A DNA stretch of 45,317 nucleotides, taken from NCBI GenBank assembly GCA_029884335.1, contig JAOUIA010000026.1, forward strand, positions 1 through 45,317. Reading direction: 5' to 3'. A program made the translations under genes and the position numbers. This stretch comes from Betaproteobacteria bacterium. Its GTDB lineage: Bacteria; Pseudomonadota; Gammaproteobacteria; Burkholderiales; Casimicrobiaceae. The notes under the pieces are model-generated. The model was not told where the DNA came from, searched no databases, and saw only the letters and a list, made by a program, of their open reading frames with translations. This document shows, one piece after another, positions 10,743 through 39,925 of this stretch. The stretch's first letter is position 1; every line of letters starts with the position of its first letter.

Positions 10743-10753
10743 CGTCACCTCCA

Positions 10754-13302: not shown

Positions 13303-14097
13303 TCATGCAAGGTCTCCCTGACGGAACCGCTTGAGGTACGGCCCGTAGCCCTTCTCCGAGAACCAGAACGCCATCAGCCGCGTGACCGCGTTGCTGGTGA
13401 TCGTGGCGCCGGACAGGCCGTCGATACGGTGCGGATCCTTGTCGGGCGGCCCCGCGCGGCCCTTGATGACGGTGAGCTTCGGCTCCCAGCCGGCGTCGTA
13501 GGCGCGGCGGCCGTGCCACAGCGCCTGCCACTTCGGGTTGCCGATCTCCCCTCCCAGCCCCGGCGTCTCCTTCTGCTCGTAGAACGTGAGCCCGCGCACC
13601 GTGTTGCCGTCGGTGTCGAGCGCGATGAAGCCGGAGACCATGCCCCACATGCCGCCGCCTTCCACGGGCAGCACGACCAGCTCGACCTTGCCGCCCTTTG
13701 GCGCGACGTAGTAGACGGCGCCGACGTTGGGCAGCCGCGACAGGCCCGCGTTGTTCGGCGGCGCAGTGTGCGAGAGCGCGTTGTCGTTGCGCACCTTGCG
13801 CTGATCGTACGACTTGGGGTCGACGCCCGGCAGCTCGGCCTTCGCCCCGGTGCGCAGGTCGACGAGGCCCACGCGGATGTTCTCGGCGAACAGGCGGTCG
13901 ATCTCGGCCGCGGTGAGCGCTTCGCCGGGCCTGGCGAGCCCGGCGGCGATCAGCACGTTCTTCTGCCGGTACTGCCGCGCCTCGGCCTCCTGCTTCGCGG
14001 AGAGACCCACGGCCGACAGCGCGACGACGAATGCGCAGACGACGCAGACCGCCGCCGCGAACAGCACCGTGTAGCGCGTCGACTCAAGCTTCGACAC
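13303..14097 (-). CDS. nqrC: Na+-translocating NADH:quinone reductase subunit C
   Basis: NqrC carries a covalent FMN in the periplasm. The 264-residue protein has one N-terminal membrane anchor (about 11-33) and a soluble domain ending in the flavinylation motif [13 protein letters not shown], with Thr232 as the acceptor for ApbE. TPGLGGEI near 178-185 is also typical of the FMN-binding domain. It starts with GTG at 14097, overlapping the end of nqrB by 14 bases. Length matches the family. Confidence 0.97.
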
Positions 14098-16831: not shown

Positions 16832-16869
16832 TAATTATCCGGCCGGAAGCGGGGATTGACGGAGGTCAA
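16828..16869 (-). promoter_or_regulatory. putative FNR/CRP-family site and promoter for nqrA
   Basis: TTGACGGAGGTCAA at 16856-16869 is a perfect inverted repeat with four central bases. On the minus strand TACGCT at 16833-16828 fits a -10 hexamer, separated by 22 bases from the site. If transcription starts near 16821 the palindrome is centred near -41.5, the class-II activator position of FNR-family proteins. The half-site TTGAC differs from the classic FNR half-site TTGAT in its last base. Inference only; no regulator gene is in the window. Confidence 0.6.
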
Positions 16870-16893
16870 CCGCACCGACCCCCGTCGTTGCCG

Positions 16894-18561
16894 TCACGCG
16901 TATTCCGGATAGTGCGGATCGTACATGTGGCCCTCGACGTACGCCACCAGGTCCGCCGGCCGCTGCTTGCGCGCGAGGCCGCTCGCGTAGGCTACGTCGG
17001 CGACCGCCGCGGCGATCAGCGCCGAGACGTGGCGCACGGCCGACAGCGGCGGGTAGAGGCTGCCCTGCGCAAGGTCGTTTTCGCTCACCGTCGTCGCGAG
17101 CGTGCGGGCGGCCGCCATGAACATCGCGTCGGTCGCCTTCGTCGCTCCCGAGACGATCAGGCCCAGCCCCACGCCGGGAAAGATGTAGGAGTTGTTGCCC
17201 TGCCGCGGCACGAAGTGGCGGCCCCTGACGCTCGCCGAGGGGAACGGGCTGCCGGAGGCGAACAGCGCGCGGCCCTCGCTCCACCCGTAGGCCTGCTGCG
17301 CCGTGCACTCCGAGCGGGAGGTGGGGTTCGACAGCGCGAACACGATCGGCCGCTCGTTGAACGCGGCCATGGCGCGCACGACTTCCTCGGTGAACGTGTT
17401 GGGGGTCGCCGCCACGCCGATGATCGCCGTGGGCTTCAGCGCGTTCACGGCCGCAGGAAAGTCGTGGACAGGCGCGTGATCGTGCGCGTAGGGCTGCTTG
17501 TGCGAGGCGAGGTCGGTGCGGCTCGCCACGACGAGGCCCTTCGAGTCGACCAGCCAGCAGCGCCGCCGGGCTTCCGCCTCGCCGAGGCCGTCGTCGACCA
17601 TCGCCTGCACCAGGAGGTCGGAGATGCCGGTCGCCGCCTCGCCCGCCCCCAGGCAGAGGATCGTCTGGTCGCGCATCGGCTTGCCGGTGACGCGCAGCGC
17701 CGAGAAGATGCCCGCGGCGGTGACCGCGGCCGTGCCCTGGATGTCGTCGTTGAAGCAGCAGATGCGGTCGCGCCACTTCGCCAGCAGGCGGAACGCGTTG
17801 TGGTTGGCGAAGTCCTCGAACTGGACGACGACGCCGGGGAACACCTCCTGCGTGGCCTCGATGAACTCGTCGACCAGCTCGTCGTACTCGGCGAGCGTCG
17901 CCCGGGGCCGCGCCACCCCGAGGTACAGCGGATCCTTGAGCAGCTTCGGGTTGTTGGTGCCGACGTCGAGCACGACCGGAAGGCACTTCACCGGGTCGAT
18001 GCCCGCGCAGGCGCTGTAGAGCGCGAGCTTGCCGATCGGGATGCCCATGCCGGAGGCGCCGAGGTCGCCGAGGCCGAGGATGCGCTCGCCGTCGGTCACG
18101 ACGATCATCGCGACCTCGTGGTGCATCCAGTTGCGCAGGATCTGCGCGACGCGGCCGCGGTCGTCCAGCGACACGTACATGCCGCGCGGCCGGCGGAAGA
18201 TGTGCCCGAACTCCTGGCACGCGAGCCCGACGGTGGGCGTGTAGACGATCGGCGTCATCTCGTCGGGGTACTGCGTCAGCACGCGGTAGAACAGCGCTTC
18301 GTTGCGGTCGTGCAGCGACTCCAGCATGATGTACTTCGCCAGCGGGCTCTCCAGCCGGTGGAAGTTCTCCATGACGCGGGCGACCTGCGAGTCCTGCGTG
18401 GAGATGCGCGGCGGCAGCAGGCCGCGCAGCCCGAGCGCGTCGCGTTCGACGTCGGTGAACGCGGTGCCCTTGTTGAGCGTCGGCTCGCGCAGCAGCGCGG
18501 CGCCCCGCGGGAACCACGAGGGGATCGGCGTGTGCGGGTGGGGCGTGACGCGGGCGTTCAT
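16894..18561 (-). CDS. NAD-type malic enzyme
   Basis: Malic enzyme decarboxylates malate to pyruvate with reduction of NAD(P)+. The 555-residue protein matches the long bacterial/mitochondrial type. Motifs include YTPTVG at 107-112 (catalytic Tyr), GASGMGIPIGKLALY with the catalytic Lys178, the metal-binding CFNDDIQGTAA at 269-279, a nucleotide-binding LGAGEAATG at 304-312 and FALSNPTSRSE near the C-terminus. The cofactor cannot be decided by eye. It is followed by the nqr promoter region and preceded by a ferredoxin gene. Together with NifJ it would route malate to acetyl-CoA. Confidence 0.96.
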   Translation of the reverse strand: MNARVTPHPHTPIPSWFPRGAALLREPTLNKGTAFTDVERDALGLRGLLPPRISTQDSQVARVMENFHRLESPLAKYIMLESLHDRNEALFYRVLTQYPDEMTPIVYTPTVGLACQEFGHIFRRPRGMYVSLDDRGRVAQILRNWMHHEVAMIVVTDGERILGLGDLGASGMGIPIGKLALYSACAGIDPVKCLPVVLDVGTNNPKLLKDPLYLGVARPRATLAEYDELVDEFIEATQEVFPGVVVQFEDFANHNAFRLLAKWRDRICCFNDDIQGTAAVTAAGIFSALRVTGKPMRDQTILCLGAGEAATGISDLLVQAMVDDGLGEAEARRRCWLVDSKGLVVASRTDLASHKQPYAHDHAPVHDFPAAVNALKPTAIIGVAATPNTFTEEVVRAMAAFNERPIVFALSNPTSRSECTAQQAYGWSEGRALFASGSPFPSASVRGRHFVPRQGNNSYIFPGVGLGLIVSGATKATDAMFMAAARTLATTVSENDLAQGSLYPPLSAVRHVSALIAAAVADVAYASGLARKQRPADLVAYVEGHMYDPHYPEYA

Positions 18562-18577
18562 GATCGCTCCTCTTCCT

Positions 18578-18823
18578 CTAGTTGTGCAGCGATTCGTACT
18601 TGGCCTGCAGCTGTTCCTTGGTCTCGGCGTGATCGGGGTCGGGGACGATGCAGTCGGCGGGGCACACGCTGATGCACTGCGGCTCGTCGTGCGCGCCCAC
18701 GCACTCGGTGCACTTCGCCGGGTCGATGACGTAGATCGGCGATCCGGCGGCGATCGCCGTGTTCGGGCAGGGCTCGACGCAGGCGTCGCAACCTGTGCAG
18801 TCGTCCGTGATCTTGAGGGCCAT
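18578..18823 (-). CDS. 2[4Fe-4S] ferredoxin (Alvin type)
   Basis: This 81-residue low-potential electron carrier has two cluster motifs: Cys9, 12, 15 and 19, then Cys38, 41, 50 and 54. The second motif has eight residues between its second and third cysteine, and a charged helix follows (AETKEQLQAKYESLHN); both are marks of the Allochromatium-type ferredoxins. It sits 16 bases before the malic enzyme gene and in the same direction as nifJ and the nfn fusion, so it may be the ferredoxin that NifJ reduces and Nfn oxidises. Confidence 0.95.
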   Translation of the reverse strand: MALKITDDCTGCDACVEPCPNTAIAAGSPIYVIDPAKCTECVGAHDEPQCISVCPADCIVPDPDHAETKEQLQAKYESLHN

Positions 18824-18869
18824 GGCAGTTCTCTCCGGGTGGCTTGGGGTGGGTGGCGGCTGTTCGCCC

Positions 18870-18902
18870 CCGCCGTCGTCCGCGCGCAGGCGGGAACGGC
18901 GG
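18870..18902. repeat. decayed palindromic element between DHOD-like and ferredoxin genes
   Basis: CCGCCGT at 18870-18876 and ACGGCGG at 18896-18902 form a 7-bp stem around GCGCAGGCGGGAA. The inner sequence resembles the stem-loop at 23598-23615, so this is likely an eroded copy of the same dispersed repeat family. It lies in the 91-base gap between the two genes and may shape mRNA stability there. Confidence 0.5.
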
Positions 18903-18914
18903 CGCGAGCGATGC

Positions 18915-19918
18915 TCAGGCGAACGCGCTGGTGTAGGACTTGAGGGCCTTCATGTAGTTGGCGCGCTCGAAGGCGTCGGGATCGGGGCAGGCGCGCTGGC
19001 TGAGCGAGCCCTTCATCTGCGCCACCGACTCGTACTCGCGCTCGCGCATCCACGCCTCGACGCCGCGCACGAGCGTGCCGACGTGCTGCGGGCCGTGCTT
19101 GAGCAGGCTGCTCGCGACCATCACGCAGTCGGCGCCGGCGAGCAGGAGCTTCAACACGTCGTCGGGCGTGTGCGCGCCGCCGGTCGCGGCGAGGCTCGCC
19201 TGGACGCGGCCGTGCAGGATGGCGATCCAGCGCAAGCTCAGGCGCAGCTCGTCGGACGTGGACAGCACGAGGTGCGGGGCGACCTCCAGCTCGTCGAGCA
19301 TGATGTCGGGCTGGACGAAGCGGTTGAACAGCACGAGCCCCGACGCGCCCGCCGCGACGAGGCGCACGGCCATGCCGGCCATCGCGCTGAAGTACGGCGA
19401 CACCTTGACGGCCACCGGGATGCGCGTGGTCGCGCGCACGGATGCGACGAGGTCGAGGTAGCGCTTCTCGACGCCGTCGGCCGTGTCGGCCGGGTCGGCC
19501 GCGAGGAAGTAGACGTTGAGCTCGATCGCGCTCGCCCCGGCCTCCTCGCACTGCTTCGCGATGCGCGTCCAGCCCCCCGGCGTGTGGCCGTTGAGGCTCG
19601 CGATCACCGGCACCGAGAGCGCCTTGCGCGCGTCGCCGATCAGCTTCAGGTAGTTCGCGGTGCCGGTCTCGTGCGCGCGGACCTCCGGGAAGAACCCGCG
19701 CGCCTCGGGCGAGAGCTCCGCGCCGTAGAGCATGAGGTCGTGCGTAGCCATCTCCTCGTGCTCGATCTGCTCCTCGAACAGCGACGGCAGCACCACCGCG
19801 CCCACGCCGGCGTCCTGCAGGCGCTTCAGGCTGTCGAGCGAGCCGGTGAGCGGCGAGGCCGAGGCGACGACGGGGTTGGCGAGCGGAAGGCCGAGGTACC
19901 CGCTCGAAAGATCGACGC

Positions 19919-19922
<4 letters not shown>
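18915..19922 (-). CDS. dihydroorotate dehydrogenase-like FMN flavoprotein
   Basis: This 335-residue protein has the FMN TIM-barrel fold of class-1 dihydroorotate dehydrogenases: GLPLANPVVASASPLTGS near the N-terminus, VIASLNGHTPGGW, VAVKVSPYF, and a phosphate-binding region around GADCVMVASSLL. The usual orotate/FMN motif NxSxPN is not present; the equivalent place reads ELNVYFLAADP. Pyrimidine synthesis is therefore doubtful. Its ATG overlaps the nifJ stop (ATGA), so it is made with pyruvate:ferredoxin oxidoreductase. The true substrate is unknown; a redox partner of NifJ or ferredoxin is possible. Confidence 0.88.
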
Positions 19923-23545
<3,623 letters not shown>

Positions 23546-23597
23546 GATGGTCTCAGTTTCGTGCGCGGCCTGCCGGCGCTCGCACACCACGGCGTCG

Positions 23598-23662
23598 TTC
23601 CCGCGCAGGCGGGAACCCAGAGTCGTTCGGCGAAAGACGCTGGCCCCCCGCCTGCGCGGGGG
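23598..23662. repeat. paired stem-loop repeat between nifJ and rubrerythrin-like gene
   Basis: Two hairpins lie in the 153-base gap: TTCCCGC/GCGGGAA at 23598-23615 and CCCCCGC/GCGGGGG at 23645-23662, each with a four-base loop. Outside the stems GTCGTT and GCGACGA form a further inverted match, so the pair looks like a mirror-image unit. The motif resembles a very common proteobacterial dispersed repeat built on TTCCCGCGCAGGCGGGAA. It may be a BIME-like or MITE-like element and could set expression ratios inside this transcript. Confidence 0.75.
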
Positions 23663-23698
23663 CGACGAATGCGTTGTCGCGCACTTGCGCCGGGCTCG

Positions 23699-24334
23699 TC
23701 ACAGCAGCCCGCGCTTGCCGGCTTCCCACTGGCGGAACTCGGTGGTCAGCAGCTCGACGTGCTCGCGCTCCTCGGCGGCGAGCTCGCGGTAGAGCTCGCG
23801 CTCGACCGAGCCCTCCGGGGCCTTCTCGCCCTCGCGCGCGAAGAAGTCCACGGCGCGCTGCTCGAACGCGATCGCGATGCGGAACAGGTTCGCCGGGTCC
23901 TCCGGCTTGCGGTCCACGCCGGCGAAGATCGCGGCGCGGTCGATCTGGAAGTCGGCCGACGGCGGGGGCAGCTCGGCGTGGTAGCGCTTCGCCAGCGTGG
24001 CCATGTGCTCCTGCTCCATCGCCGCGAAGCGGGCGAACAGGTCGCCGAGCAGCGGGTCCTTCGCGTCCCGCGACGCGCGCTGGTAGAACGCGTGGCCGCC
24101 GAGCTCGATCTCGAAGGCCTTGCGCACGGCCTCGAGCGCCGCGTCGCCCTCGACGCCGCCGCGGTCGAGGAGCTCGAGCCTGCCCTTGCAGTAGGGGCAC
24201 AGCCCGTAGGGAAACGCGAAGCCCTCGGAGACCTTGTGGCAGGAGGCGCAGCGCCACGTCAACTCGACGCCGGCGCAGCAGACGTAGGGCTCCTCGTCCT
24301 CGAGCGGACGCTGGCAGCGCGGGCAGATGCTCAT
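23699..24334 (-). CDS. rubrerythrin-like ferritin-fold protein with N-terminal zinc ribbons
   Basis: The 211-residue protein starts with a cysteine-rich module (Cys4, 7, 19, 20, 29, 32, 46, 49) that looks like two zinc-ribbon or rubredoxin-like knuckles. A four-helix ferritin-like domain follows, about 60-205, with repeated Glu and Glu-x-x-His patterns (EIELGGHAFYQRA, MEQEHMATLAKR, AIAFEQRAVDFF, LAAEEREHVELL) that could hold a di-iron site. Rubrerythrins remove peroxide in anaerobes, which would protect NifJ and Nfn. The ATG overlaps the nfn-fusion stop (ATGA). The domain order is reversed from classical rubrerythrin, where the rubredoxin part is C-terminal. Confidence 0.85.
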   Translation of the reverse strand: MSICPRCQRPLEDEEPYVCCAGVELTWRCASCHKVSEGFAFPYGLCPYCKGRLELLDRGGVEGDAALEAVRKAFEIELGGHAFYQRASRDAKDPLLGDLFARFAAMEQEHMATLAKRYHAELPPPSADFQIDRAAIFAGVDRKPEDPANLFRIAIAFEQRAVDFFAREGEKAPEGSVERELYRELAAEEREHVELLTTEFRQWEAGKRGLL

Positions 24335-26700
24335 GAGCGGACCTCGGCGGTGGCATGGGTTGGGACGGGGGCCGCCCCCGGCGGCGCCCACGCATCGGCG
24401 TGCTCCTGGGTCACCGGCCAGACGGACTTGCCGCCGGCGAGCCACGCGCCGATCGCCTTCGCGGCGCGGCGTCCGGCGCCCATCGCGAGGATGACCGTCG
24501 CGGCGCCCGTCACGATGTCGCCGCCGGCGAACACGCCCGGCACGCTGGTCGCCTGCGTGGCCGCGTCGGCGACGATGTAGCCCCACTTGTTGAGCTCGAG
24601 GCCCGGCGTGGACTTGGTGACGATCGGGTTCGCCTTGGTGCCGAGCGCGTAGATCACCGTGTCGCACTCGAGCTCGACGAACTCGTCGAGCGGCACCGGC
24701 CGCCGGCGCCCCTTCTCGTCGGGCTCGCCCAGCGTCATCTTCTGCACCTTCATGCCGCGCACGCCGCCCTCGTCGTTCACCAGGATCTCGACGGGCGCGT
24801 GCAGGAAGAAGAACTCGATGCCCTCCTCCTTGGCGTGGCGCAGCTCCTCGATGCGCGCGGGAGCCTCCGCCTCGGTGCGCCGGTACACGCAGCGCACGGT
24901 CGGCGTGCCGAGCCGCTTGGCCACGCGCAGGCAGTCCATCGCGGTGTTGCCCGCGCCGATCACGACGACGCTCTTGCCGAGCGTGATCGGCGTGTCGAGG
25001 AACGGGAACTTGTCGCCGCCCATCAGGTTGACGCGGGTGAGGAACTCGTTGGCCGAGTAGACCTGGCCCGCGAACTCGCCGGGGATGCCGAGGAACGCCG
25101 GCGCGCCCGCGCCCGCGCCCACGAACACCGCGTCGAAGCCCATGTCGGCCATGAGCTGCGGCACCGAGAACGTCTTGCCGACGACCTTGTTCGTCTCGAA
25201 GCGCACGCCCATCGCCTTCAGCGTGTCGACCTCGCGGCTGATGATGTCGCGCGGCAGGCGGAAGCTCGGGATGCCGTACTGCAGCACGCCGCCGACCACG
25301 TGCAACGCCTCGTAGACGGTGACGTCGCAGCCGTACCTGGCGAGGTCGGCGGCGACGGCCAGCCCCGACGGCCCGGAGCCCACGATGGCGACCTTGCCGA
25401 GCCTGCGGGCGACCTTCGGCGGCGTGGCGGCGGGGCCGTGCGCGTTGTCGCCGACGAAGCGCTCCAGCCGTCCGATGGCCACCGCCTCCATCGGCGTCTT
25501 CTTGTTCTTCGCGATGACGCACTGCGCCTCGCACTGCGACTCCTGCGGGCACACGCGGCCGCACACCGAGGGGAACAGGTTCGACTCGTTGATGACGGCG
25601 AGCGCGCCGTTCATGTCCCGCACCAGCAGGTGGCGGATGAAGCGCGGGATGTCGATGCCGACCGGGCAGCCCTCGATGCAGGTGGGCTTGCTGCACTGGA
25701 TGCAGCGCTCGGCCTCGGCGATCGCGTCGGCCATCGAGTAGCCGAGGTTCACCTCCTTGAAGTTGCGCGAGCGCTCGAGCGCGTCGCGCTCCGGCATCTT
25801 CACCGCGTGCGGCGCCAGGTCCTTGTACTTCTTGTAGTTGCGCTTGCCCTCGACGAACAGCTGCTGCTCGACCCGGCAGACGTGCGCGTAGTCGTCGGTC
25901 GCCTTCGACTCCTCGCCCCGGAAGCGCTTCTGCCGCAGCATCAGCTCCTTGAAGTCGACCTGGTGTCCGTCGAAGTCGGGGCCGTCCACGCAGGCGAACC
26001 GGATCTCGTCGCCGACCGTGACGCGGCAGGAGCCGCACATGCCCGTGCCGTCGACCATGATCGCGTTGAGCGACACCATCGTCTTCACGCCCGACGGCCG
26101 CGTGGTCTCGACGCAGGCGTTCATCATCGGCAGTGGGCCGATGGCGACGGCGAGGTCTGGCCGGTCGCGCGCGACGACGTCGGCCAGCGCCGCGGTCACG
26201 AAGCCGGGGCGGCCGTAGCTGCCGTCGTCGGTGCAGACGATCAGCTCGTCGCAGTACTTCGCGAACTTCTCCTCCCAGAACACGAGGTCCTTCGTGCGGA
26301 AGCCGATGATCCCGGTCGTCCGGTTCCCGGCTTCCTTGAACGCACGAAGCTGCGGGTAGACCGGGGCGACGCCGAGGCCGCCGCCGACCAGCACGACGTG
26401 CCCGGCCTTGCCCACGTGCTGCGGCAGGCCCAGCGGCCCCACGAAGTCGGCGAACTCGTCGCCTTCCTTGTAGTGGTCGCGCATCTCCAGCGTCGTCTTG
26501 CCCAGCGCCTGGATGACCATCGTGATGGTGCCGCGCTCGCGGTCGAAGTCGGCGACGGTGAGCGGGATGCGCTCGCTGCCCTCGTGCAGCCGCAGCATCA
26601 CGAAGTGGCCCGGCTCGGCCGAGCGCGCGACGTCGGGCGCCTCCACTTCCCAGAGGAACGTGGTCTCCGAGAAGGCTTCGCGGCGGAGGATCCTGGTCAT
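24331..26700 (-). CDS. fused NfnS-NfnL type ferredoxin/NAD(P)H transhydrogenase
   Basis: Residues 1-280 match NfnS/SudB (DHOD electron-transfer subunit family): FAD part with GHFVMLRL, NAD(H) part with LVGGGLGVAPVYPQL at 104-118, and a [2Fe-2S] site at Cys222, 225 and 237 with Asp217 nearby. Residues 300-789 match NfnL/SudA (glutamate synthase small-subunit family): cysteines 333, 336, 341, 345 and 380, 384, 390, 394 for [4Fe-4S] clusters, an FAD fold GSGPSGLAVAADLA at 441-454, an NADPH fold VIGAGNTAMD at 580-589 and AGGDIVTGAATV near 725. Separate NfnAB enzymes couple Fd(red)+NADH to 2 NADPH by electron bifurcation. Here both are one chain. Database names may call it DHOD/glutamate synthase; no GltB partner is near. 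Confidence 0.93.
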   Translation of the reverse strand: MTRILRREAFSETTFLWEVEAPDVARSAEPGHFVMLRLHEGSERIPLTVADFDRERGTITMVIQALGKTTLEMRDHYKEGDEFADFVGPLGLPQHVGKAGHVVLVGGGLGVAPVYPQLRAFKEAGNRTTGIIGFRTKDLVFWEEKFAKYCDELIVCTDDGSYGRPGFVTAALADVVARDRPDLAVAIGPLPMMNACVETTRPSGVKTMVSLNAIMVDGTGMCGSCRVTVGDEIRFACVDGPDFDGHQVDFKELMLRQKRFRGEESKATDDYAHVCRVEQQLFVEGKRNYKKYKDLAPHAVKMPERDALERSRNFKEVNLGYSMADAIAEAERCIQCSKPTCIEGCPVGIDIPRFIRHLLVRDMNGALAVINESNLFPSVCGRVCPQESQCEAQCVIAKNKKTPMEAVAIGRLERFVGDNAHGPAATPPKVARRLGKVAIVGSGPSGLAVAADLARYGCDVTVYEALHVVGGVLQYGIPSFRLPRDIISREVDTLKAMGVRFETNKVVGKTFSVPQLMADMGFDAVFVGAGAGAPAFLGIPGEFAGQVYSANEFLTRVNLMGGDKFPFLDTPITLGKSVVVIGAGNTAMDCLRVAKRLGTPTVRCVYRRTEAEAPARIEELRHAKEEGIEFFFLHAPVEILVNDEGGVRGMKVQKMTLGEPDEKGRRRPVPLDEFVELECDTVIYALGTKANPIVTKSTPGLELNKWGYIVADAATQATSVPGVFAGGDIVTGAATVILAMGAGRRAAKAIGAWLAGGKSVWPVTQEHADAWAPPGAAPVPTHATAEVRS

Positions 26701-26878
26701 GGCTGGGCCTTCGTGAGGGGCTTGTCGGACGCGGGCGGGAAGAAGTCGGGCAGGCTGCGACCGCGCGCCTGAGCGCACGCCGCCCGCGACGCGACCGCCG
26801 TGACTCCGGCCCCGGCGGCACCGCCGTGTTCGCGGTACCGGGCGGCGACGCCTTCGCCGCCGTTTCTGCTTAATGCGA

Positions 26879-26920
26879 ATGCTCAAGCCCCGCGGTGGAA
26901 TGCCGGTTGATTGAAGTCAA
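26879..26920 (-). promoter_or_regulatory. putative FNR-family site for the nfn-nifJ operon
   Basis: TTGATTGAAGTCAA at 26907-26920 has one classic FNR half-site (TTGAT) and one GTCAA half. On the minus strand GAGCAT at 26884-26879 sits 22 bases downstream, a possible weak -10 with the key A and T. That would give a leader of roughly 170 bases before the nfn start. The orientation is inferred from the -10 spacing only. Confidence 0.45.
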
Positions 26921-26966
26921 CTGCCGGCGCGGGCCCGGTGCCGGGACGCCGCTCATCTCCGGGGCG

Positions 26967-26980
26967 TTGATGGCCGTCAA
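26967..26980. promoter_or_regulatory. additional FNR-family-like palindrome
   Basis: TTGATGGCCGTCAA at 26967-26980 begins exactly 60 bases from the first site in this region, about six helical turns. No -10 element is seen at the class-II distance on either strand, so it may be an upstream (class-I or auxiliary) site for either operon, or a repression site. Confidence 0.45.
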
Positions 26981-27077
26981 TTGTGCAACGCAGCAGCCGC
27001 CGGCTGTCCGGAAATGCGAAGCCCTGCGCAACCGGCCGGCGCCCCGGTGCCGGCGGGCGACCGGTTGCCGGATTCCT

Positions 27078-27118
27078 TTGATGGCGGTCAACACCCTGCC
27101 GGCGGGGGCCGCTAACGT
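27078..27118 (+). promoter_or_regulatory. putative FNR-family class-II promoter for frdCAB
   Basis: TTGATGGCGGTCAA at 27078-27091 is followed after 21 bases by TAACGT (27113-27118), a good TAnnnT -10 hexamer. A start near 27125-27126 would place the palindrome centre at about -41, the class-II position for FNR-family activators. The frdC ATG is at 27181, giving a leader of about 55 bases with TAAGGAG as the ribosome binding site. The arrangement is nearly identical to that before nqrA. Confidence 0.62.
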
Positions 27119-27180
27119 GCCTTGGTCGGGTGCCGTGCGGTCGTCGGATTGCGCCCGCCCAGCCAACCTAAGGAGCCGAC

Positions 27181-27954
27181 ATGGCGTCGACGAGCCCCAC
27201 GATCGCCGGCGTAGGCCTCGCCGATCGCCCCCGCGCGAGCCGGGTCCCCGCCCGCCTCGACCTGCTGCAGAGCTTCACCGGCGGCGTGCTGGCCCTGTTC
27301 ATGTGGGGCCACATGTTCTTCGTGTCCACGATCCTGGTCAGCAAGGACTTCATGTGGACCGTGACGAGGATGTTCGAGGGCTACTTCATCTTCGGGAAGC
27401 CCTACCCGGGCATCGTGTCGGTGATCGTGTTCGGCATCCTCGTGATGTTCGTCGCGCACGCGTTCCTCGCCGTGCGCAAGCTGCCGATCAACTTCCGCCA
27501 GTGGCAGATGTACCGCGGCCACATGAAGGTAATGAAGCACGAGGACACCACGCTGTGGTGGGTGCAGGCGATCACCGGCTTCATGCTGTTCTTCCTGGTG
27601 ACCGTCCACCTCTACCAGATGCTGATGCACCCGGGGCTGATCGGCCCGTACGAGTCGGCCGACCGCGTGTGGAGCGGCCGCTGGTGGCCGCTCTACCTCG
27701 TCATGCTGTTCGCCGTCGAACTGCACGGGGGCATCGGCCTCTACCGGCTGGCGGTGAAGTGGGGCTGGTTCGAGCGCGGCGACGCGGACGCCACGCGCTC
27801 GGCGCTCAAGAAGGCGAAGTGGGCGCTGACCGTGTTCTTCCTGGCGCTCGGGCTCGCCACGCTGGGCGCCTACATGAAGATCGGCTACGAGCACGCGGAC
27901 CGCGCGGGCGAGCGCTACGTGCCCGCGTCGGTGCAACAGGGAGCGGTCAAATGA
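27181..27954 (+). CDS. frdC: fumarate reductase dihaem cytochrome b subunit (Wolinella type)
   Basis: FrdC anchors quinol:fumarate reductase and carries two haems b. The 257-residue five-helix protein matches the Wolinella succinogenes subunit closely from memory: [46 protein letters not shown]. Haem ligands fall at His44, His93, His143 and His182. Glu66 (quinol site) and Glu180 (E-pathway proton route) are also kept, all at the same numbers I recall for Wolinella. A menaquinol-linked fumarate reductase is more likely than a succinate dehydrogenase, but direction cannot be read from sequence. It overlaps frdA (ATGA). Confidence 0.96.
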
Positions 27955-29978
27955 AGGTCGTCTACACCGACGTGCTGGTGATCGGCGGGGGACTTGCCGG
28001 CCTGCGGCTCGCCATCGCGGCCAAGCGCCGCGGCCACGACGCGCTGATCCTGTCGCTGGTCCCGCCGAAACGCTCGCACAGCAAGGCGGCGCAGGGCGGC
28101 ATGCAGGCATCGCTCGGCAACGTCATCAAGGGGCAGGGCGACAACGAGGACGTGCACTTCGAGGACACGGTGCGCGGCTCGGACTGGGGCGCCGACCAGG
28201 AGGTCGTGCGCATGTTCGTCAACACCGCGCCCAAGGCCGTGCGCGAGCTGGCGGCATGGGGCGTGCCGTGGAGCCGCGTGCGCCGCGGCGACCGCACGGT
28301 CGTGATCAACGGCCAGAAGGTGACGATCACCGAGCGCGACGAGGCGCACGGGCTGGTCGCGCAGCGCGACTTCGGCGGCACGAAGAAGTGGCGCACCTGC
28401 TACGTCTCCGACTGCACCGGCCACGCGATGCTGCAGGCGGTCGGCGACCAGGCGATCGCCGCGTCTATCCCGGTGCACGAGCGGACCGAGGCGCTGGCGC
28501 TGATCCACGACGGCGGGCGCTGCTACGGCGCGGTGGTGCGCGACCTCGTCACCGGGGCGCTGTCGGCGTACGTCGCCAAGGCGACGGCGATCACCACCGG
28601 CGGCGCGGGGCGCCTGTACCGCGTGACCACCAACGCGGTCATCTGCGAGGGCATCGGCCACGCGATCGCGCTGGAGACCGGCGTGGCGGCGCTCGGCAAC
28701 ATGGAGGCGGTCCAGTTCCACCCGACGGGCATCTTCCCGGCCGGCATCCTGGTGACCGAGGGCTGCCGCGGCGACGGGGGGCTGCTCAAGGACGCCGACG
28801 GCCACCGCTTCATGCCGGACTACGAGCCGGAGAAGAAGGAGCTCGCCTCGCGCGACGTGGTCTCGCGCCGCATGGAGGAGCACATCGCCAAGGGCAAGGG
28901 CGTCAAGTCGCGCTTCGGCGAGCACATCTGGCTCGACATCACGCTGCTGGGCGAGCACCACATCCGCCACAACCTGCGCGAGGTCTTCGAGATCTGCCAC
29001 TACTTCCTGGGTGTGGACCCGGTGAAGGAGATGATCCCGGTGAGGCCCGCGCAGCACTACACGATGGGCGGCGTGCGCACGAAGCCCACCGGCGAGAGCC
29101 CGACGCTCAAGGGCCTGTTCTCCGCCGGCGAGGCCGCCTGCTGGGACATGCACGGCTTCAACCGGCTGGGCGGCAACTCGGTGGCCGAGACCGTCGTGGC
29201 CGGGATGATCGTCGGCGAGTACGTCGCCGACTTCTGCGACCGCTCCGAGAACGACGTGAGCATCCCGACCGGAGTCGTGCGCGGGTTCCTCGAGCGCGAG
29301 CAGGCGAAGCTCGACCGGCTCGTGCACGGCGGCGGCACCGAGGACGCCGCGGCGATCCGCGCGCGCATGCAGGAGATCATGACGGCGAAAGTCGGCATCT
29401 TCAGGCGCGGCAAGGACCTCGAGGAGGCCGTCGACGAGCTGCAGAAGCTGCTGGTGCGCAGCCGCAGCATCGGCCTGCGCTCGCGTGTGCCGGGGCCCAA
29501 CCCGGAGCTGGTGATCGCCTACCGCACGCAGAAGATGCTCAAGCTCGCGCTGACCGTCGCCTACGGGGCCCTCACGCGGACGGAGAGCCGCGGCGCGCAC
29601 TTCCGCGAGGACCACCCGCGGCGCAACGACGTGCAATGGCTGAAGCGCACGCTCGCGACGTGGAAGAACGAGACGGACACGCTGCCCGCGCTCGACTACG
29701 AGCCGCTCGACGTCAGGCGCATGGAGCTGCCGCCGGGCTGGCGCGGCTACGGCGCGAAGGACTACGCCGACCACCCGGACACGGCGGCGCGGCAGGCCGA
29801 GGTCGACGCGATCAAGGAGAAGCACGAGGACCGCTTCGAGCGCCAGCGCGCGCTGATGCCCTACGCGCACCTGCTGCCGAAGAGGCTGCAGGGTCGCAAC
29901 GAGCGCATCGACGAGCGCTTCCCGCCCGCGGAGCCGAACGGCACGCCGGAGTCCGAGTTTGCCTGGGAAAGCGAGTGA
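27951..29978 (+). CDS. frdA: fumarate reductase flavoprotein subunit
   Basis: FrdA reduces fumarate to succinate at a covalent FAD. The 675-residue protein has the Rossmann start [10 protein letters not shown], the FAD-linking His43 in [68 protein letters not shown] with catalytic Arg, HYTMGGVRT, and [18 protein letters not shown]. The first 50 residues align without gaps to the Wolinella protein as I remember it. It follows frdC with an ATGA overlap and precedes frdB by nine bases, the same CAB order as in Wolinella. Confidence 0.97.
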
Positions 29979-29987
29979 GGTGAGGAC

Positions 29988-30794
29988 GTGACGACGACGA
30001 CCATCGTGAAGGCCCCCTCGACGACCCCGGCCCCCTCGGCGACCGCGGCACGCTCCGGAGGTGTGGCGACTGGCACGAAGATCCGCGTGCACGCGCTGCG
30101 CTACAACCCGCAGGAGCCGGGCAGCGTTCCGCGCATGCAGACCTACGAGCTCGAGCAGTCGGAGGGCATGACGCTGTTCATCGCGCTCAACGAGATCCGC
30201 GAGACGCAGGACCCGACGCTGCAGTTCGACTTCGTCTGCCGCGCCGGCATCTGCGGCAGCTGCGCGATGATGGTCAACGGCCGGCCGACGCTCGCCTGCC
30301 GCACGCTCACCCGCGACGTCGGGCCCGACATCACGCTGGCGCCGCTGCCCGTGTTCGAGCTGATCGGCGACCTGTCGGTGAACACCGGCAAGTGGATGCG
30401 CGGTACCAGCGAGCGGCTGCAGGCGTGGCTGCATGGCGACGCGAAGGCGCGCGACATCAACCGGCTCGAGGAACGCATGGAGCCGGAGCTGGCCGAGCAG
30501 CTGAACGAGCTCGACCGCTGCGTGGAGTGCGGCTGCTGTGTTGCCTCGTGCGGCACCGCCCGCATGCGGCCGGACTTCGTCGGCGCCGTGGGCATGGCGA
30601 AGATTGCGCGCTTCCGCCTCGACCCGCGCGACAAGCGGACCGACGACGACTACTACGAGCTGGTGGGCACCGACGACGGCGTGTTCGGCTGCATGTCGCT
30701 GCTCGCCTGCCACGACGTCTGTCCGAAGGACCTGCCGCTGCAGACGCAGATCGCGTTCCTGCGCCGGAAGATGGCCGGGAAGGGCTGGGCCTGA
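29988..30794 (+). CDS. frdB: fumarate reductase iron-sulfur subunit
   Basis: FrdB relays electrons from haem to FAD through three clusters. The 268-residue protein has [2Fe-2S] ligands Cys84, 89, 92 and 104, and the C-terminal [4Fe-4S] and [3Fe-4S] ligands in [11 protein letters not shown] (178-188), Cys235, Cys241 and Cys245. Conserved phrases are [25 protein letters not shown] and [14 protein letters not shown]. The start is GTG 29988 with GAGGTGAGG upstream. The first 30 residues form a Pro/Thr/Ala-rich extension not expected in the Wolinella subunit; a later start has no well-spaced ribosome site. Confidence 0.96.
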
Positions 30795-30805
30795 CCTGAC
30801 GCCTG

Positions 30806-30822
30806 CCCGGGCGCCGCCCGGG
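30806..30822 (+). terminator. GC-rich hairpin after frdB
   Basis: CCCGGGC (30806-30812) and GCCCGGG (30816-30822) form a perfect 7-bp stem with a three-base loop, 11 bases after the frdB stop. No T-run follows, so this is at most a weak or Rho-assisted terminator. It may instead protect the frd mRNA end. Confidence 0.4.
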
Positions 30823-30923
30823 TCGAGGTTGCCCGGGATCAAGGTTTCGCTGCGCGCGGCGCCGCGCGCGTGCGCGCGTGTCCAGAATGGTAAGGAACGG
30901 CCGCGCGGCCTGGCAGAGCATCG

Positions 30924-30953
30924 TTTCGACATCCGGCGCGCGCCGGATCGAAA
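30924..30953. promoter_or_regulatory. 30-base palindrome just upstream of aspA
   Basis: A perfect 18-base palindrome (30931-30948, ATCCGGCG then CGCGCCGGAT) is extended by TTTCG (30924-30928) and CGAAA (30949-30953), with AC unpaired on the left. It ends only a few bases before GAAGGAG and the aspA ATG at 30970. It could be an operator, or an mRNA hairpin that gates ribosome access. Confidence 0.6.
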
Positions 30954-30969
30954 GTGAAGGAGTTGCGCA

Positions 30970-32373
<1,404 letters not shown>

Positions 32374-32833
32374 CTAGGACATGCCCGGCGCTCCGCGACG
32401 GTCCGGTGGAGAAAAAGGCGCATGCCGAGTGACAGCTTCGTGGCGGGCCGGATCCGGATGGAAGCAAACAGACAGGACAAGCCCGGCGGGAAAGAGGACA
32501 AGCCCGGCGGGAGACAGGACAAGCCCGGCGCTCCGCGACGGTCCGGTCAACGAAAAGACGCATGCCGAGTGACAGCTTCGTGGCGGGCCGGATCCGGATG
32601 GAAGCAAACAGACAGGACGAGCCCGGCGGGAGTCAGGACGGGCCCGCCGCTCGCGACGGTCCGGTGAACGAAAAGACGCATGCCGAGTGACAGCTCCGTG
32701 GCGCGGCTCGAACCGCACGGAAGGAGCGCCGTCGGCGGCCCGCGCGACGAAATGGCGCCTGCCGGCTGAAGGACCGCCTCGGGCGGTCGGGGTCGCCGGC
32801 TCGCGGCGACCTGTCTGAACGCAAGGAACACCG
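32374..32833. other. 460-bp intergenic region between aspA and dcu transporter
   Basis: Apart from the tandem repeats (to about 32720) the region holds two successive GC hairpins before the transporter gene. These are GACCGCC/GGCGGTC at 32772-32788 with a TCG loop and GGTCGCC/GGCGACC at 32791-32811. No convincing -35/-10 pair or FNR-like palindrome was seen. A short open frame through the repeats exists but has no start region or homology that supports it. The hairpins may form a leader or terminator for the downstream gene. Confidence 0.6.
32376..32720. repeat. compound tandem repeat: 119-bp unit with nested 21-bp units
   Basis: Three units follow the aspA stop. Unit A spans 32376-32515 (140 bases), unit B 32516-32634 (119 bases), and a diverged partial unit C starts at 32635 and fades near 32720. 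Each starts with AGGAC then GCCCGGCGCTC-like sequence and contains GCATGCCGAGTGACAGC and GATCCGGATGGAAGC. Each ends in 21-base subrepeats starting AGGACAAGCCCGGCGGGA (starts at 32474, 32495, 32516; and 32614, 32635). Unit A has one extra 21-base copy, which explains 140 versus 119. The copies are regular and adjacent, without the unique spacers of CRISPR arrays. Confidence 0.88.
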
Positions 32834-34159
32834 ATGACACTCTCGATCGTCCTGCAGTTCGCCGTAGTGCTGGCGGCGATCTGGATGGGCTCGCGCTACA
32901 GCGGGGTCGGCCTCGGCCTGTGGGGCGCGGTCGGATTGCTGATCCTGGTCGTGGCCTTCGGCGTGAACCCGACCTCGCCGCCGGTCGACGTGATGCTGAT
33001 CATCCTCGCGGTGATCATGGCCGCGTCGGTGATGGACGCGGCGGGAGGCATCGACTTCCTGGTGCGCATCGCCGAGCGCATCATCCGCGCCAACCCGAAG
33101 TACGTGACCATCGTCGCGCCGCTGACCACGTGGTCGTTCACGTTCGTCGCCGGCACGGGACACATCGTCTACCCGCTGCTCCCGGTGATCTACGAGACCG
33201 CGCACCAGAGCGGCATCCGTCCCGAGCGTCCGATGGCAGTGGCGACGATCGCCTCGCAGCAGGCGATCACCGCGAGCCCGGTGGCGGCCGCGACGGCGGC
33301 GATGATCGGCCTGTTCAGCGAGAAAGGCCTCTCGCAGTGGGGCCTGCCCGAGATCCTGATGATCTGCGTGCCCGCGACGCTGACCGGCGTGGTCGCGGCG
33401 GCGATCGTCTCGATGTTCGTCGGCAAGGACCTGAAGGACGACCCCGAGTACCAGGCGCGGTTGAAGTCAGGACAGGTTCCCGCACCGAAATCCGCGGAAG
33501 AGCGGCCGCCGCTCAAGGCCTCCGCGAAGACCTCGGCGTACCTGTTCCTCTGCGGCGTGGCGCTGGTCGTGTTCTTCGGGTTCTTCCCCGAGTACCGCAA
33601 GCTTCCCGGCGCCAAGGGGCCGCTCGCGATGCCGATCGTCATCGAGATCGTCATGATGGCGGTCGCGGCGATCATGCTGCTCGCGACGAAGATCAACGTC
33701 GACGAGGTGCCGAAGACCGCGACGCTGCGCGCCGGGGTCGTCGCCGTGATCGGCATCTTCGGCCTGGCGTGGCTCGGCGACAGCTTCATCGCCGCGCACC
33801 AGAACGTCATCGTGCCGGCGATCGGCGAGTGGGCGAAGGCCGCCCCCTGGACGTTCGCGTTCGGCCTGTTCTTCGCCTCGGTGCTGCTGTACAGCCAGGC
33901 TGCGACGACCCGTGCGCTGATGCCGCTGGGCATGGCGCTCGGCATCCCGCCGCAGTTCCTGATCGCGATGTTCCCGTCGGTCAACGGCTACTTCTTCATC
34001 CCGACCTACGGCTCGCTGATCGCGGCGATCAACTTCGACCTGTCCGGCACGACCAGGATCGGCAAGTACGTGCTCAATCACTCGTTCATGATCCCGGGCA
34101 TCGTCGCCACCTCCGTCGCCGTGATCACGGGCCTGTTCCTGGCGCGCATCATGTTCTGA
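32834..34159 (+). CDS. anaerobic C4-dicarboxylate transporter (DcuA/DcuB family)
   Basis: Dcu carriers exchange external fumarate, malate or aspartate for internal succinate during fumarate respiration. The 441-residue protein has about ten hydrophobic helices and family stretches PPVDVMLIILAVIMAAS, RIIRANPKYVTIVAPL, AGTGHIVYPLLPVIYE, GIRPERPMAVATIASQ, and the C-terminal FDLSGTTRIGKYVLNHSFMIPG. Length equals the Escherichia coli proteins. DcuA and DcuB cannot be separated safely by eye. The position after frdCAB and aspA strongly suits an antiporter for anaerobic C4 metabolism. Confidence 0.94.
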   Translation: MTLSIVLQFAVVLAAIWMGSRYSGVGLGLWGAVGLLILVVAFGVNPTSPPVDVMLIILAVIMAASVMDAAGGIDFLVRIAERIIRANPKYVTIVAPLTTWSFTFVAGTGHIVYPLLPVIYETAHQSGIRPERPMAVATIASQQAITASPVAAATAAMIGLFSEKGLSQWGLPEILMICVPATLTGVVAAAIVSMFVGKDLKDDPEYQARLKSGQVPAPKSAEERPPLKASAKTSAYLFLCGVALVVFFGFFPEYRKLPGAKGPLAMPIVIEIVMMAVAAIMLLATKINVDEVPKTATLRAGVVAVIGIFGLAWLGDSFIAAHQNVIVPAIGEWAKAAPWTFAFGLFFASVLLYSQAATTRALMPLGMALGIPPQFLIAMFPSVNGYFFIPTYGSLIAAINFDLSGTTRIGKYVLNHSFMIPGIVATSVAVITGLFLARIMF

Positions 34160-34199: not shown

Positions 34200-35480
34200 A
34201 TGGACACTCGAGCTTCGCACACCGAGCCGCGCCGACCATCGTGCCGGTGGCGGCGGCTTGCTGCCGTGGTGGCAGCCGCGCTCGTCGCGGGCGCCGCTTG
34301 CGGGCAGGGAATCGTTCCCGGCGATCTGCCGAAGGAAGGCTTCCGGCTGCCCGGCGGGATCGAGCCCGTCGTGCAACTGCGCACCTACTACTTCGACCAG
34401 GAGAGCACGTCCGGCACGCCGAGCGAGGCGTGGGCGCTGGGCGGCTGGTTCGGCCTGCGCAGCCCGTGGTGGGGCGACGTCTTTCAGGCCGCGCTCAACT
34501 TCTATACGTCGCAGCCGCTCTACGCCCCCGACGACAAGGGCGGGACCAGGCTTCTGCGTTCCAACCAGGACGCGATCAACGTGCTGGCAGAGGCGTTCGG
34601 CGCCGTCCGCTTCGCGGGCCAGACCCTCACCATGTACCGGCAGCTGATCAACCGGCCGTTCATCAATCCGCAGGACAACCGGATGGTGCCGAACACGTTC
34701 GAGGCATACACGCTCTCCGGGACCGTCGACGCGGTGTCGTACATCGGCGGCTACATCACGAAGGAGAAGGTCCGCGACAGCGAATCGTTCCGCTGGATGT
34801 CGAACGTCGCCGGCGGCAGCGGCGACCAGACGGGCGTCGCTTTCGCCAGCGCCACGTGGAACTTCGTGAAGAACGGCTACGTTCGCGTCGACGAGCAGCA
34901 CACCTTCGACGTCTTCAACACGTTCTACGCTGACGTCCGCTTTCCCCTCCAAATCGACGACCAGACGAGCGTCGCCCTCGGCGCGCAGTACTATCCGCAG
35001 TCCTCCGTAGGCGCCGAGCAGCTCGGCTCGTTCTCGACGTGGGGCTATGGGCTGCAGGCGACGCTGAGCTACGGGCCAGTCGGCGCGCAGCTCTATTGGA
35101 CGCAGACCGGCAGCGATCGCGACACGCTCAATCCGTACGGCAGCCACGCGTCGTACCTCGACATGATGCAGGTGTCGTTCAACACCGCGGGCGAGAAGGC
35201 CTGGGGCATCGGCGCCAATGTGGACTTCGCGAAGGTCGGCGCGCCCGGACTCACCGCCGCGGCCATGTATGCCTCGGGCCACGACCGCCTGGACTACACG
35301 ACCGGCGCGCCGATGCCGGATCGCAGCGAGACCGATGTCCGCGTCGACTATGCGTTTCCCAAGGGCTCGCTGCTGGAGGGCTTCGTCGCCACGTTCCGCT
35401 ACTCGTGGCTGCGTCAGGACGGCGCGCCGCAGACCGGCACGCAACTGCGGGCCTACGTCAACTATGCGGTGCGGTTCTAG
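34200..35480 (+). CDS. OprD-family outer-membrane porin
   Basis: The 426-residue protein starts with a basic N-terminus and hydrophobic signal sequence (cleavage near AACGQG, about residue 35) and ends in phenylalanine, the outer-membrane assembly signal. The mature part has many alternating amphipathic strands with aromatic girdle residues (RTYYFDQES, YIGGYITKEKVRDSESFRWMS, GVAFASATWNFVKNG). The SESFRWMS region and overall length fit OprD porins, which pass amino acids and carboxylates. It follows the Dcu gene by 40 bases, so it may provide outer-membrane entry for the same substrates. Substrate choice is inference. Confidence 0.8.
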   Translation: MDTRASHTEPRRPSCRWRRLAAVVAAALVAGAACGQGIVPGDLPKEGFRLPGGIEPVVQLRTYYFDQESTSGTPSEAWALGGWFGLRSPWWGDVFQAALNFYTSQPLYAPDDKGGTRLLRSNQDAINVLAEAFGAVRFAGQTLTMYRQLINRPFINPQDNRMVPNTFEAYTLSGTVDAVSYIGGYITKEKVRDSESFRWMSNVAGGSGDQTGVAFASATWNFVKNGYVRVDEQHTFDVFNTFYADVRFPLQIDDQTSVALGAQYYPQSSVGAEQLGSFSTWGYGLQATLSYGPVGAQLYWTQTGSDRDTLNPYGSHASYLDMMQVSFNTAGEKAWGIGANVDFAKVGAPGLTAAAMYASGHDRLDYTTGAPMPDRSETDVRVDYAFPKGSLLEGFVATFRYSWLRQDGAPQTGTQLRAYVNYAVRF

Positions 35481-37866: not shown

Positions 37867-37883
37867 TCCCGGAGGAGTCCGCG

Positions 37884-38967: not shown

Positions 38968-38987
38968 TCATCAACGCGCTGCTGACG

Positions 38988-39922: not shown

Positions 39923-39925
39923 GCG

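What the first reader, a model, noticed from the sequence alone, without database searches (positions are those of the whole stretch)
16856..34159. Candidate sodium-linked fumarate/aspartate respiration island
Within about 30 kb lie genes for aspartate uptake, aspartase, a C4-dicarboxylate exchanger, a dihaem fumarate reductase, malic enzyme, pyruvate:ferredoxin oxidoreductase, a ferredoxin, an Nfn-type transhydrogenase, Na+-NQR with its maturation factors and, beyond 37884, an Mrp-like antiporter. Each part is known; their linkage in one GC-rich proteobacterial locus with shared FNR-like sites suggests a co-selected module in which NADH oxidation by NQR and fumarate reduction are joined through quinone and Na+. 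Linkage does not prove joint use.
Basis: partly seen in the sequence, partly recalled or inferred. Interest (0 to 1): 0.7.

Follow-up and report, generated by a model that had tools for sequence, protein, structure and literature searches.

The report
Anaerobic fumarate-respiration gene island
This bacterium carries one gene block, probably switched on without oxygen, that could let it live on aspartate or fumarate; some relatives keep the block with different enzymes doing the same jobs, although most of them seem to lack a known way to make the membrane electron carrier it needs.

Summary
The block has Na+-NQR with ApbE, malic enzyme, ferredoxin, single-chain PFOR, a fused NfnAB, and, divergently, a Wolinella-type dihaem quinol:fumarate reductase (QFR), aspartase and Dcu. 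Three exact FNR-type sites lie between the two arms; the whole genome has 14. FNR-type sites precede frdC in 18 of 22 loci examined.

Comparison supports co-selection. One same-genus genome keeps the whole block. Several other genomes keep malic enzyme, a pyruvate:ferredoxin enzyme, a flavoprotein and an NADH:quinone dehydrogenase beside frdCAB, but fill the slots differently (complex I for NQR, PorGAB for NifJ, GltD-PorD for NfnAB). NQR is on another contig in three frd genomes; Mrp, OprD and SDF are linked only in the window.

Unexpected is the quinone. Of 21 frdCAB genomes in 100 relatives, none has RquA or MqnA/D and 3 have MenD, yet 13 have MenA, found otherwise only in 2 genomes with MenD and MenB. 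The own genome has MenA, but no MenD, MenB, MqnA/D or RquA was found: the precursor may be scavenged or made by an unrecognised route. Best reading: FNR-type-controlled aspartate/fumarate dismutation. New variant of a known kind.

The parts
9224..10273 (-). apbE, FAD:protein FMN transferase (NQR flavinylation)
   Evidence: PF02424 E 9e-82; PRK10461 below its cut-off; an apbE match stands next to nqr in all 7 genomes with a strong NqrA match, at 31% identity in G056
10287..10754 (-). CBS-domain protein between apbE and nqrF
   Evidence: PF00571, two stretches
10754..11977 (-). nqrF
   Evidence: TIGR01941, 667 bits, cut-off 295
11991..12605 (-). nqrE
   Evidence: PF02508
12621..13310 (-). nqrD
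   Evidence: PF02508
13303..14097 (-). nqrC, with SGAT flavinylation motif
   Evidence: PF04205; motif
14084..15316 (-). nqrB, with SGAT flavinylation motif
   Evidence: PF03116 E 1e-97; motif
15402..16775 (-). nqrA
   Evidence: TIGR01936, 474 bits, cut-off 321; PDB 8a1u, 7xk3
16856..16869 (.). FNR-type site TTGACGGAGGTCAA about 80 bp upstream of nqrA
16894..18561 (-). malic enzyme (oxaloacetate-decarboxylating, PRK13529)
18578..18823 (-). 2[4Fe-4S] ferredoxin, YfhL family
   Evidence: NF033683, 119 bits, cut-off 86
18915..19922 (-).
   Evidence: PF01180; 88% identical in G015, 48% in G025
19919..23545 (-). nifJ, single-chain pyruvate:ferredoxin oxidoreductase
   Evidence: TIGR02176, 1740 bits, cut-off 911
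   Evidence: PF02915; 87% identical in G015
24331..26700 (-). nfnAB, fused NfnS+NfnL (NADH-dependent ferredoxin:NADP+ oxidoreductase type)
   Evidence: PDB 5jca_S over residues 1-266, 4ylf_B over 301-761
26907..26920 (.). FNR-type site 1, TTGATTGAAGTCAA
26967..26980 (.). FNR-type site 2, TTGATGGCCGTCAA
27078..27091 (.). FNR-type site 3, TTGATGGCGGTCAA
27181..27954 (+). frdC, dihaem cytochrome b of a Wolinella-type QFR; H44, H93, H143, H182, E66, E180 present at the same numbers
27951..29978 (+). frdA flavoprotein
   Evidence: PRK08626, 1116 bits, cut-off 663; PDB 2bs2_A 932 bits
29988..30794 (+). frdB iron-sulfur subunit
   Evidence: PRK13552, 407 bits, cut-off 264
30970..32373 (+). aspA, aspartate ammonia-lyase
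   Evidence: PRK12273 over cut-off; TIGR00839 672 bits, cut-off 681
32834..34159 (+). dcu, anaerobic C4-dicarboxylate transporter
   Evidence: TIGR00770, 490 bits, cut-off 331
34200..35480 (+). OprD-family porin (not conserved with the island)
   Evidence: PF03573; window only
35584..36846 (+). SDF-family dicarboxylate/amino-acid symporter, specificity open
   Evidence: PF00375; below DctA and GltP cut-offs
36851..37756 (+). SBP_bac_3 solute-binding protein, Glu/Asp-type but below cut-off
   Evidence: two partial 68-70% matches (25% and 32% of its length) after dcu in G015
37794..45147 (+). Mrp/Mbh-type cation antiporter genes (E, F by eye, G, MbhD/E, B by position, C, three antiporter-like subunits); not conserved with the island
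   Evidence: window only

Best explanation
The block is an anaerobically induced aspartate/fumarate dismutation and respiration module. Dcu and AspA supply fumarate. The oxidative arm takes malate to pyruvate (malic enzyme, NADH) and to acetyl-CoA (PFOR, reduced ferredoxin); NfnAB with the local ferredoxin balances Fd, NADH and NADPH. NQR oxidises NADH, reduces quinone and pumps Na+. The Wolinella-type QFR oxidises the quinol and makes succinate, which leaves through Dcu. Two divergent arms share a promoter region with three FNR-type sites. Shown here: gene content, domains, key residues of FrdC and the NQR flavin motifs, sites, conservation, functional replacement. Inferred: the direction of each reaction, co-expression, Na+ as coupling ion. 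The quinol is most likely a naphthoquinone completed by MenA, whose precursor source is unknown.
For: Whole block apbE to dcu conserved in G015, 64-95% protein identity. Functional replacement over 26 loci: NADH:quinone dehydrogenase genes in reach of frd in 9 (nqr 3, nuo 6), malic enzyme in 8, PFOR in 8 (G025's nifJ at -27 kb), NfnAB or GltD-PorD in 7 (G025's gltD-type match at -24 kb), aspA in 16, dcu in 13. FNR-type sites upstream of frdC in 18 of 22 loci; background 0.0225 per kb. Other genome-wide FNR-type sites lie before nrdD, nuoA, an unfused nfnA and an mtrA/mtrB-like pair. FrdC 54% identical to Wolinella FrdC without gaps, all four haem histidines, E66 and E180 kept. Strong NqrA matches (E below 1e-25) in 6 of 21 frd genomes against 1 of 79 others, Fisher p 2.8e-4; in the own genus 3 of 3 against 0 of 19. 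A separate SdhA-like gene exists in the genome (C106), so the QFR is not the only complex II.
Against: frdCAB is present in only 3 of 22 genomes of the genus. NQR is on another contig in G009, G025 and G039. Fused NfnAB is not associated with frd (2 of 21 against 4 of 79, p 0.60). Genus g6 and G066 show only frdCAB with or without aspA-dcu, several on short contigs. Of the 22 loci examined for FNR-type sites, 4 have none: G009 and G057, and the named contigs L004 and L006. No known complete route to a low-potential quinone was found in the genome. The own genome also has nuoA behind an FNR-type site (C33), so NQR is not the only NADH dehydrogenase available. No expression data; own-genome fumarase and acetate-branch genes and an FNR regulator were not searched for.
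Confidence: 0.65

Rival explanations
1. The QFR draws on ubiquinol, or works mainly as a second succinate dehydrogenase. NQR would then feed the ordinary UQ pool and the linkage would be regulatory, not a dedicated fumarate-respiration chain.
For: No MenD, MqnA/D or RquA found in the own genome and none of these in 18 of 21 frd genomes.
Against: The enzyme is the menaquinol type with E66 and the haem ligands kept (roles recalled); a separate SdhA-like gene is present; FNR-type sites; MenA is enriched in the frd genomes. UQ is about 70-80 mV too positive for fumarate (established knowledge, not tested).
Confidence: 0.15
2. The island serves reductive carbon assimilation (PFOR, malic enzyme and fumarate reductase running in the reductive direction) or is an internal electron sink during anaerobic aromatic degradation, not respiration on external aspartate or fumarate.
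For: PFOR, NfnAB, malic enzyme and QFR can all run that way (established knowledge). A TPP-binding gene, 2-oxoacid:ferredoxin beta-subunit-like by eye, stands beside a second NfnA with an FNR-type site; an enoyl-CoA-hydratase-family gene near another site resembles a benzoyl-CoA-pathway hydrolase by eye.
Against: aspA and dcu are the most widely conserved partners of frdCAB (16 and 13 of 26 loci), which points to external C4 acids.
Confidence: 0.13
3. Two unrelated neighbouring units (redox/NQR arm and frd-asp-dcu arm) that happen to be divergent; linkage is inherited proximity without joint use.
For: The frd-asp-dcu part occurs alone in g6 and, without dcu, in G009; NQR clusters occur on other contigs in G009, G025 and G039; fused NfnAB occurs without frd in G001, G014, G024 and G030.
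Against: Different genomes have the same set of jobs beside frd with unrelated enzymes, which inheritance of one arrangement does not explain; three FNR-type sites in the shared intergenic region.
Confidence: 0.07

Closest known systems
SNFR (NQR-QFR) sodium-translocating NADH:fumarate oxidoreductase of Prevotella bryantii (PMC8516057; abstract, section list and two passages seen)
   Same: NQR plus a type B QFR (frdCAB) described as one Na+-pumping NADH:fumarate unit; menaquinone as carrier there
   Different: Here in a betaproteobacterium-like genome, genetically linked with malic enzyme, PFOR, NfnAB, aspA and dcu; no physical supercomplex tested; no complete MK route found in this genome
Wolinella succinogenes QFR (PDB 2bs2, 1qlb; organism name recalled)
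   Same: FrdC 54% identical without gaps, all ligand and proton-path residues named above present
   Different: Host group and quinone supply differ; linked here to NQR genes
Rhodoquinone/RquA fumarate reduction (PMC5953543; passages and section 8 read)
   Same: Another way for UQ bacteria to reach fumarate reduction; rquA often close to respiratory genes including complex II there, and close to an SdhA-like gene in at least 3 of the 6 RquA genomes here (G019, G045, G077)
   Different: No overlap with frdCAB in this sample: 0 of 21 frd genomes have RquA (with only 5 RquA genomes over cut-off this is not significant, p 0.58)
DHNA-dependent menaquinone completion in Porphyromonas pasteri (PMC9704088; passages read)
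   Same: The two final genes that turn DHNA into menaquinone, without the upper pathway
   Different: Shown there by growth tests; here only gene presence

Membership tests
Epsilonproteobacterial-type (type B, dihaem) QFR | FrdA, FrdB and FrdC each over the curated equivalog cut-off | tested here: met
Epsilonproteobacterial-type (type B, dihaem) QFR | Four haem-ligating histidines and the E66/E180 residues of FrdC (roles recalled) | tested here: met
Epsilonproteobacterial-type (type B, dihaem) QFR | Oxidises a low-potential quinol in vivo | not testable with these tools
   No MenD, MqnA/D or RquA found; MenA found
Na+-NQR | Six subunits NqrA-F in order | tested here: met
Na+-NQR | FMN attachment motifs in NqrB and NqrC, and ApbE nearby | tested here: met
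Na+-NQR | NqrM maturation factor | tested here: inconclusive
   Motif scan of the window negative, motif from memory; rest of the genome not searched
NfnAB | NfnS and NfnL modules with DHODB-type [2Fe-2S] and Fer4_20 domains | tested here: met
NQR-QFR (SNFR) supercomplex | Physical association and Na+-coupled NADH:fumarate activity | not testable with these tools
   sequence only
FNR/ANR regulon | Palindromic TTGAY-N4-RTCAA at promoters, above chance (consensus recalled) | tested here: met
FNR/ANR regulon | Binding by an FNR-family protein of this organism | not tested
   regulator not searched for in the own genome
Complete Men pathway | MenD and MenB in the own genome | tested here: not met
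   MenD best about 60 bits against cut-off 244; no MenB at E 1e-60; genome 95.6% complete
Futalosine pathway | MqnA/MqnD family PF02621 | tested here: not met
Rhodoquinone pathway | RquA (NF038261) | tested here: not met
   none at E 1e-20
MenA (DHNA prenyltransferase) | TIGR00751 over cut-off and inside the clade of MenA from MenD-positive genomes | tested here: met
   156 bits, cut-off 102; below the stricter NF004751 cut-off, 224 vs 264; tree

The most novel reading that the evidence does not exclude
In this order the Wolinella-type QFR is served by a naphthoquinone whose head group does not come from a complete known pathway. Of 21 frd genomes 13 have MenA over cut-off; 10 of these 13 lack MenD, and none has MqnA/D. 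G015, G039 and G066 lack MenD too but have MenB with a MenE-like gene. Either they live on DHNA or o-succinylbenzoate released by neighbours, which would tie their anaerobic respiration to cross-feeding, or an unrecognised upper route makes the precursor. Three frd genomes without MenA over cut-off (G025, G042, G069) carry instead a cassette of three radical-SAM genes and a MenA-like UbiA prenyltransferase, with a PqqD-like gene beside it in G069; on the frd contig, within about 17 kb, in G025 and G042. It is a candidate for a further low-potential quinone.
Probability: 0.3. Interest if true: 0.75.

Novelty: new variant of a known kind. Interest (0 to 1): 0.52.

Why it matters
If true, it shows an anaerobic energy module put together from interchangeable parts: the jobs are kept beside fumarate reductase, the enzymes are not. 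It turns 'which quinone do ubiquinone bacteria use for fumarate' into a direct test, because most of these genomes show no complete menaquinone route and no rhodoquinone gene, yet many keep MenA with a menaquinol-type reductase. DHNA feeding or quinone profiling would decide it. Cross-feeding dependence might also make such bacteria hard to isolate (inference).

Tried and rejected
Rhodoquinone: expected at first, rejected for these genomes because RquA was found in none of the 21 frd genomes. Menaquinone by the futalosine route: rejected. A complete Men route: rejected for 18 of 21. A hand search for RquA among own-genome methyltransferases settled nothing by itself: 39 of 40 matches to PF08241 were scanned, 10 of them singly and the rest only through a table capped at 25 of 85 families. 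It gave the NCBIfam accession used.

Mrp and OprD/SDF as part of the module: dropped, since they are window-only next to frd; in G015 dcu is followed by SBP-like matches and two PF00939 transporters. NqrM: not found in the window. That G057 has an island plus complete MK synthesis: dropped, as MenA is there but no MenD or MqnA/D over cut-off. Weak MenA-like matches as evidence: dropped, since below the cut-off they occur in 7 frd genomes but also in 11 of the others.

For NqrA I counted only matches with E below 1e-25 (7 of 100). The tool's own tally was 26 at E 0.001 and 11 over the cut-off; the four extra ones over the cut-off score near 25 bits over part of the model. The malic-enzyme match of G046 (27% identity) was not counted.

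First MenA tree had three mis-framed rows and is replaced, where the long branches of G009 and the radical-SAM group may be placed wrongly. Papers: no report of this linkage showed in the listings, and no betaproteobacterial MenA-without-MenD case in the 12 listed of 105 and 12 of 50; the library is open-licence only, so this is a weak negative.

Full report
What is there. The window is a whole 45,317-base contig of a 3.66-Mb genome, 95.6% complete. The five named contigs with a related frdA are MAGs called Aquincola, Betaproteobacteria, Leptothrix, Candidatus Binatia and Desulfobulbus. Three of the five are betaproteobacterial, so I place the genome, by inference, near Burkholderiales. On the minus strand, in reading order, lie nfnAB (fused), a rubrerythrin-like gene, nifJ, a DHO_dh-family gene, a YfhL-type ferredoxin, malic enzyme, nqrABCDEF, a CBS gene and apbE. 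On the plus strand lie frdCAB, aspA, dcu, an OprD porin, an SDF carrier, a binding protein and Mrp genes.

The reductase. FrdC aligns without gaps over 229 residues to Wolinella FrdC, 124 identical, with H44, H93, H143, H182, E66 and E180 all present (residue roles recalled). FrdA scores 932 bits to 2bs2_A. The genome has a separate SdhA-like gene at C106.

Regulation. TTGATNNNNRTCAA occurs at 14 distinct places in the genome, three of them within the about 480-bp intergenic region between nfnAB and frdC; the reversed pattern gives none. By Poisson arithmetic of mine, three in that one region has a chance near 1e-9. A degenerate palindrome precedes nqrA. Of the other 11 places, four lie before nrdD, nuoA, an unfused nfnA and an mtrA/mtrB-like pair; the rest are less telling. 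Upstream of frdC, 18 of 22 examined loci have a TTGAYNNNNRTCAA site within 600 bp against a background of 0.0225 per kb in the same loci; G009, G057, L004 and L006 have none, and G043, G066, G084 and L002 were not examined.

Distribution. Among 100 genomes (own included), 21 have a frdA ortholog: 20 at 73% identity or more, and G080 with a partial match (83% over 161 residues). The listed matches of the other genomes are SdhA-like, at most 44%. In the own genus it is 3 of 22. NqrA at E below 1e-25 is in 7 of 100: 6 of the 21 and 1 of the 79 (Fisher p 2.8e-4). These genomes are related, so p-values are only a guide; inside the genus NQR is in 3 of 3 frd genomes and 0 of 19 others. Fused NfnAB at 70% identity or more is not tied to frd: 2 of 21 against 4 of 79.

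Neighbourhoods. Over 26 loci (21 genomes, 5 named contigs) NADH:quinone dehydrogenase genes are in reach of frd in 9: nqr in G000, G015, G057; complex I in G025, G039, G042, G069, L002, L003. Malic enzyme is in 8, a PFOR in 8 (nifJ in G000, G015 and, 27 kb away, G025; porGAB in G035, G039, G042, G057, G069), NfnAB or GltD-PorD in 7, aspA in 16, dcu in 13. The GltD-type partner carries a PorD domain in G057. G057 adds a class I fumarase and MenA in the same run. Several loci are cut by contig ends (among them G035, G043, G080, G082, G084, G086, L002, L004), so absences there mean little. OprD, SDF and Mrp stand beside frd only in the window. In G015 two PF00939 carriers follow dcu instead. Against linkage: NQR is on another contig in G009, G025 and G039, and genus g6 (11 genomes) shows only the frd(-asp-dcu) part.

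Mechanism. The enzymes form a dismutation: aspartate gives fumarate; one part is oxidised through malate, pyruvate and acetyl-CoA, giving NADH and reduced ferredoxin; the rest is reduced to succinate with electrons passed from NADH through NQR and quinone. Reaction directions, fumarase, the acetate branch and Na+ coupling are inferred.

The quinone. PF02621 (MqnA/D) is over cut-off in 0 of 100. MenD over cut-off is in 5 of 100: G040, G046, G082 (frd genomes) and G061, G067; nearly all genomes give weaker matches, which I take for other TPP enzymes. RquA over cut-off is in 5 of 100, none of them frd genomes, with G063 just below; with so few this lack of overlap is not significant (p 0.58). MenA over cut-off is in 15: 13 of the 21 frd genomes, and G061 and G067 (p 2.5e-9). 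Eight of the 13 are from one genus, g6, so the independent cases are fewer; in the own genus it is 2 of 3 frd genomes and 0 of 19 others. Matches below the cut-off occur in 7 frd and 11 other genomes and are not used. MenB over cut-off is in 8: the five MenD genomes and G015, G039, G066, with a MenE-like gene next to it in these three; it is below the MenE cut-off, and in G039 cut by the contig end. The own MenA (C27:38119-38946) falls in the MenA clade that includes MenA of MenD-positive genomes. So the own genome has the shape of a DHNA user, MenA plus a UbiE-family methyltransferase (best E 1.7e-115 among 39 proteins, cut-off not shown), as described for Porphyromonas pasteri (PMC9704088, passages). 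Incompleteness may hide a gene in one genome, but hardly in 18; G057 and G066 are rated 100% complete and G069 99% in one contig.

What is known. NQR and type B QFR working as one Na+-pumping unit are described in Prevotella bryantii (PMC8516057, abstract and passages). RQ and rquA linkage to respiratory genes: PMC5953543 (section 8). [quoted passage not shown] I found no report of this linkage in the listings of the searches made.

Verdict. A real, partly conserved module of known parts behind FNR-type sites; new variant of a known kind; the quinone supply is the open and most interesting question.

Noticed in passing
L084:11466-15470 (G042), L059:12712-16682 (G025), L234:7515-11718 (G069): Cassette of three radical-SAM proteins and a MenA-like UbiA prenyltransferase, with a PqqD-like protein beside it in G069; on the frd contig in G042 and G025. 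No cut-off reached among the NCBIfam matches shown. Only fetched loci were searched, not the own genome.
   Followed up: partly
   Followed up: no
L120:4534-8450 (own C44): A multihaem cytochrome and an MtrB/PioB-type outer-membrane barrel behind a perfect FNR palindrome; possible extracellular electron transfer. A similar pair, by eye, stands by the radical-SAM cassette of G069.
   Followed up: partly
L116:154-4200 (own C16): A second, unfused NfnA/NfnB pair with a TPP-binding gene that looks like a 2-oxoacid:ferredoxin beta subunit, and an FNR-type site.
   Followed up: partly
window 23699-24334: The ferritin-like gene directly after nfnAB fits NCBIfam PRK12775, whose name adds a ferritin domain and which nfnAB matches only over positions 1-783 of 1006.
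   Followed up: partly
L232 and L108 (G009 C52:70000-102900): NQR of G009 stands between a [NiFe]-hydrogenase (by eye) with a MenA-like gene and complex-I/Mrp-like antiporter subunits at 28-33% identity.
   Followed up: no
window 10287-10754; L121, L126: CBS-domain genes recur next to the island and next to FNR-type sites elsewhere in the genome (those outside the window named by eye).
   Followed up: no
L125:12757-15085 (own C89): Enoyl-CoA-hydratase-family gene and a dehydrogenase that look by eye like benzoyl-CoA-pathway enzymes, beside an FNR-type site.
   Followed up: no
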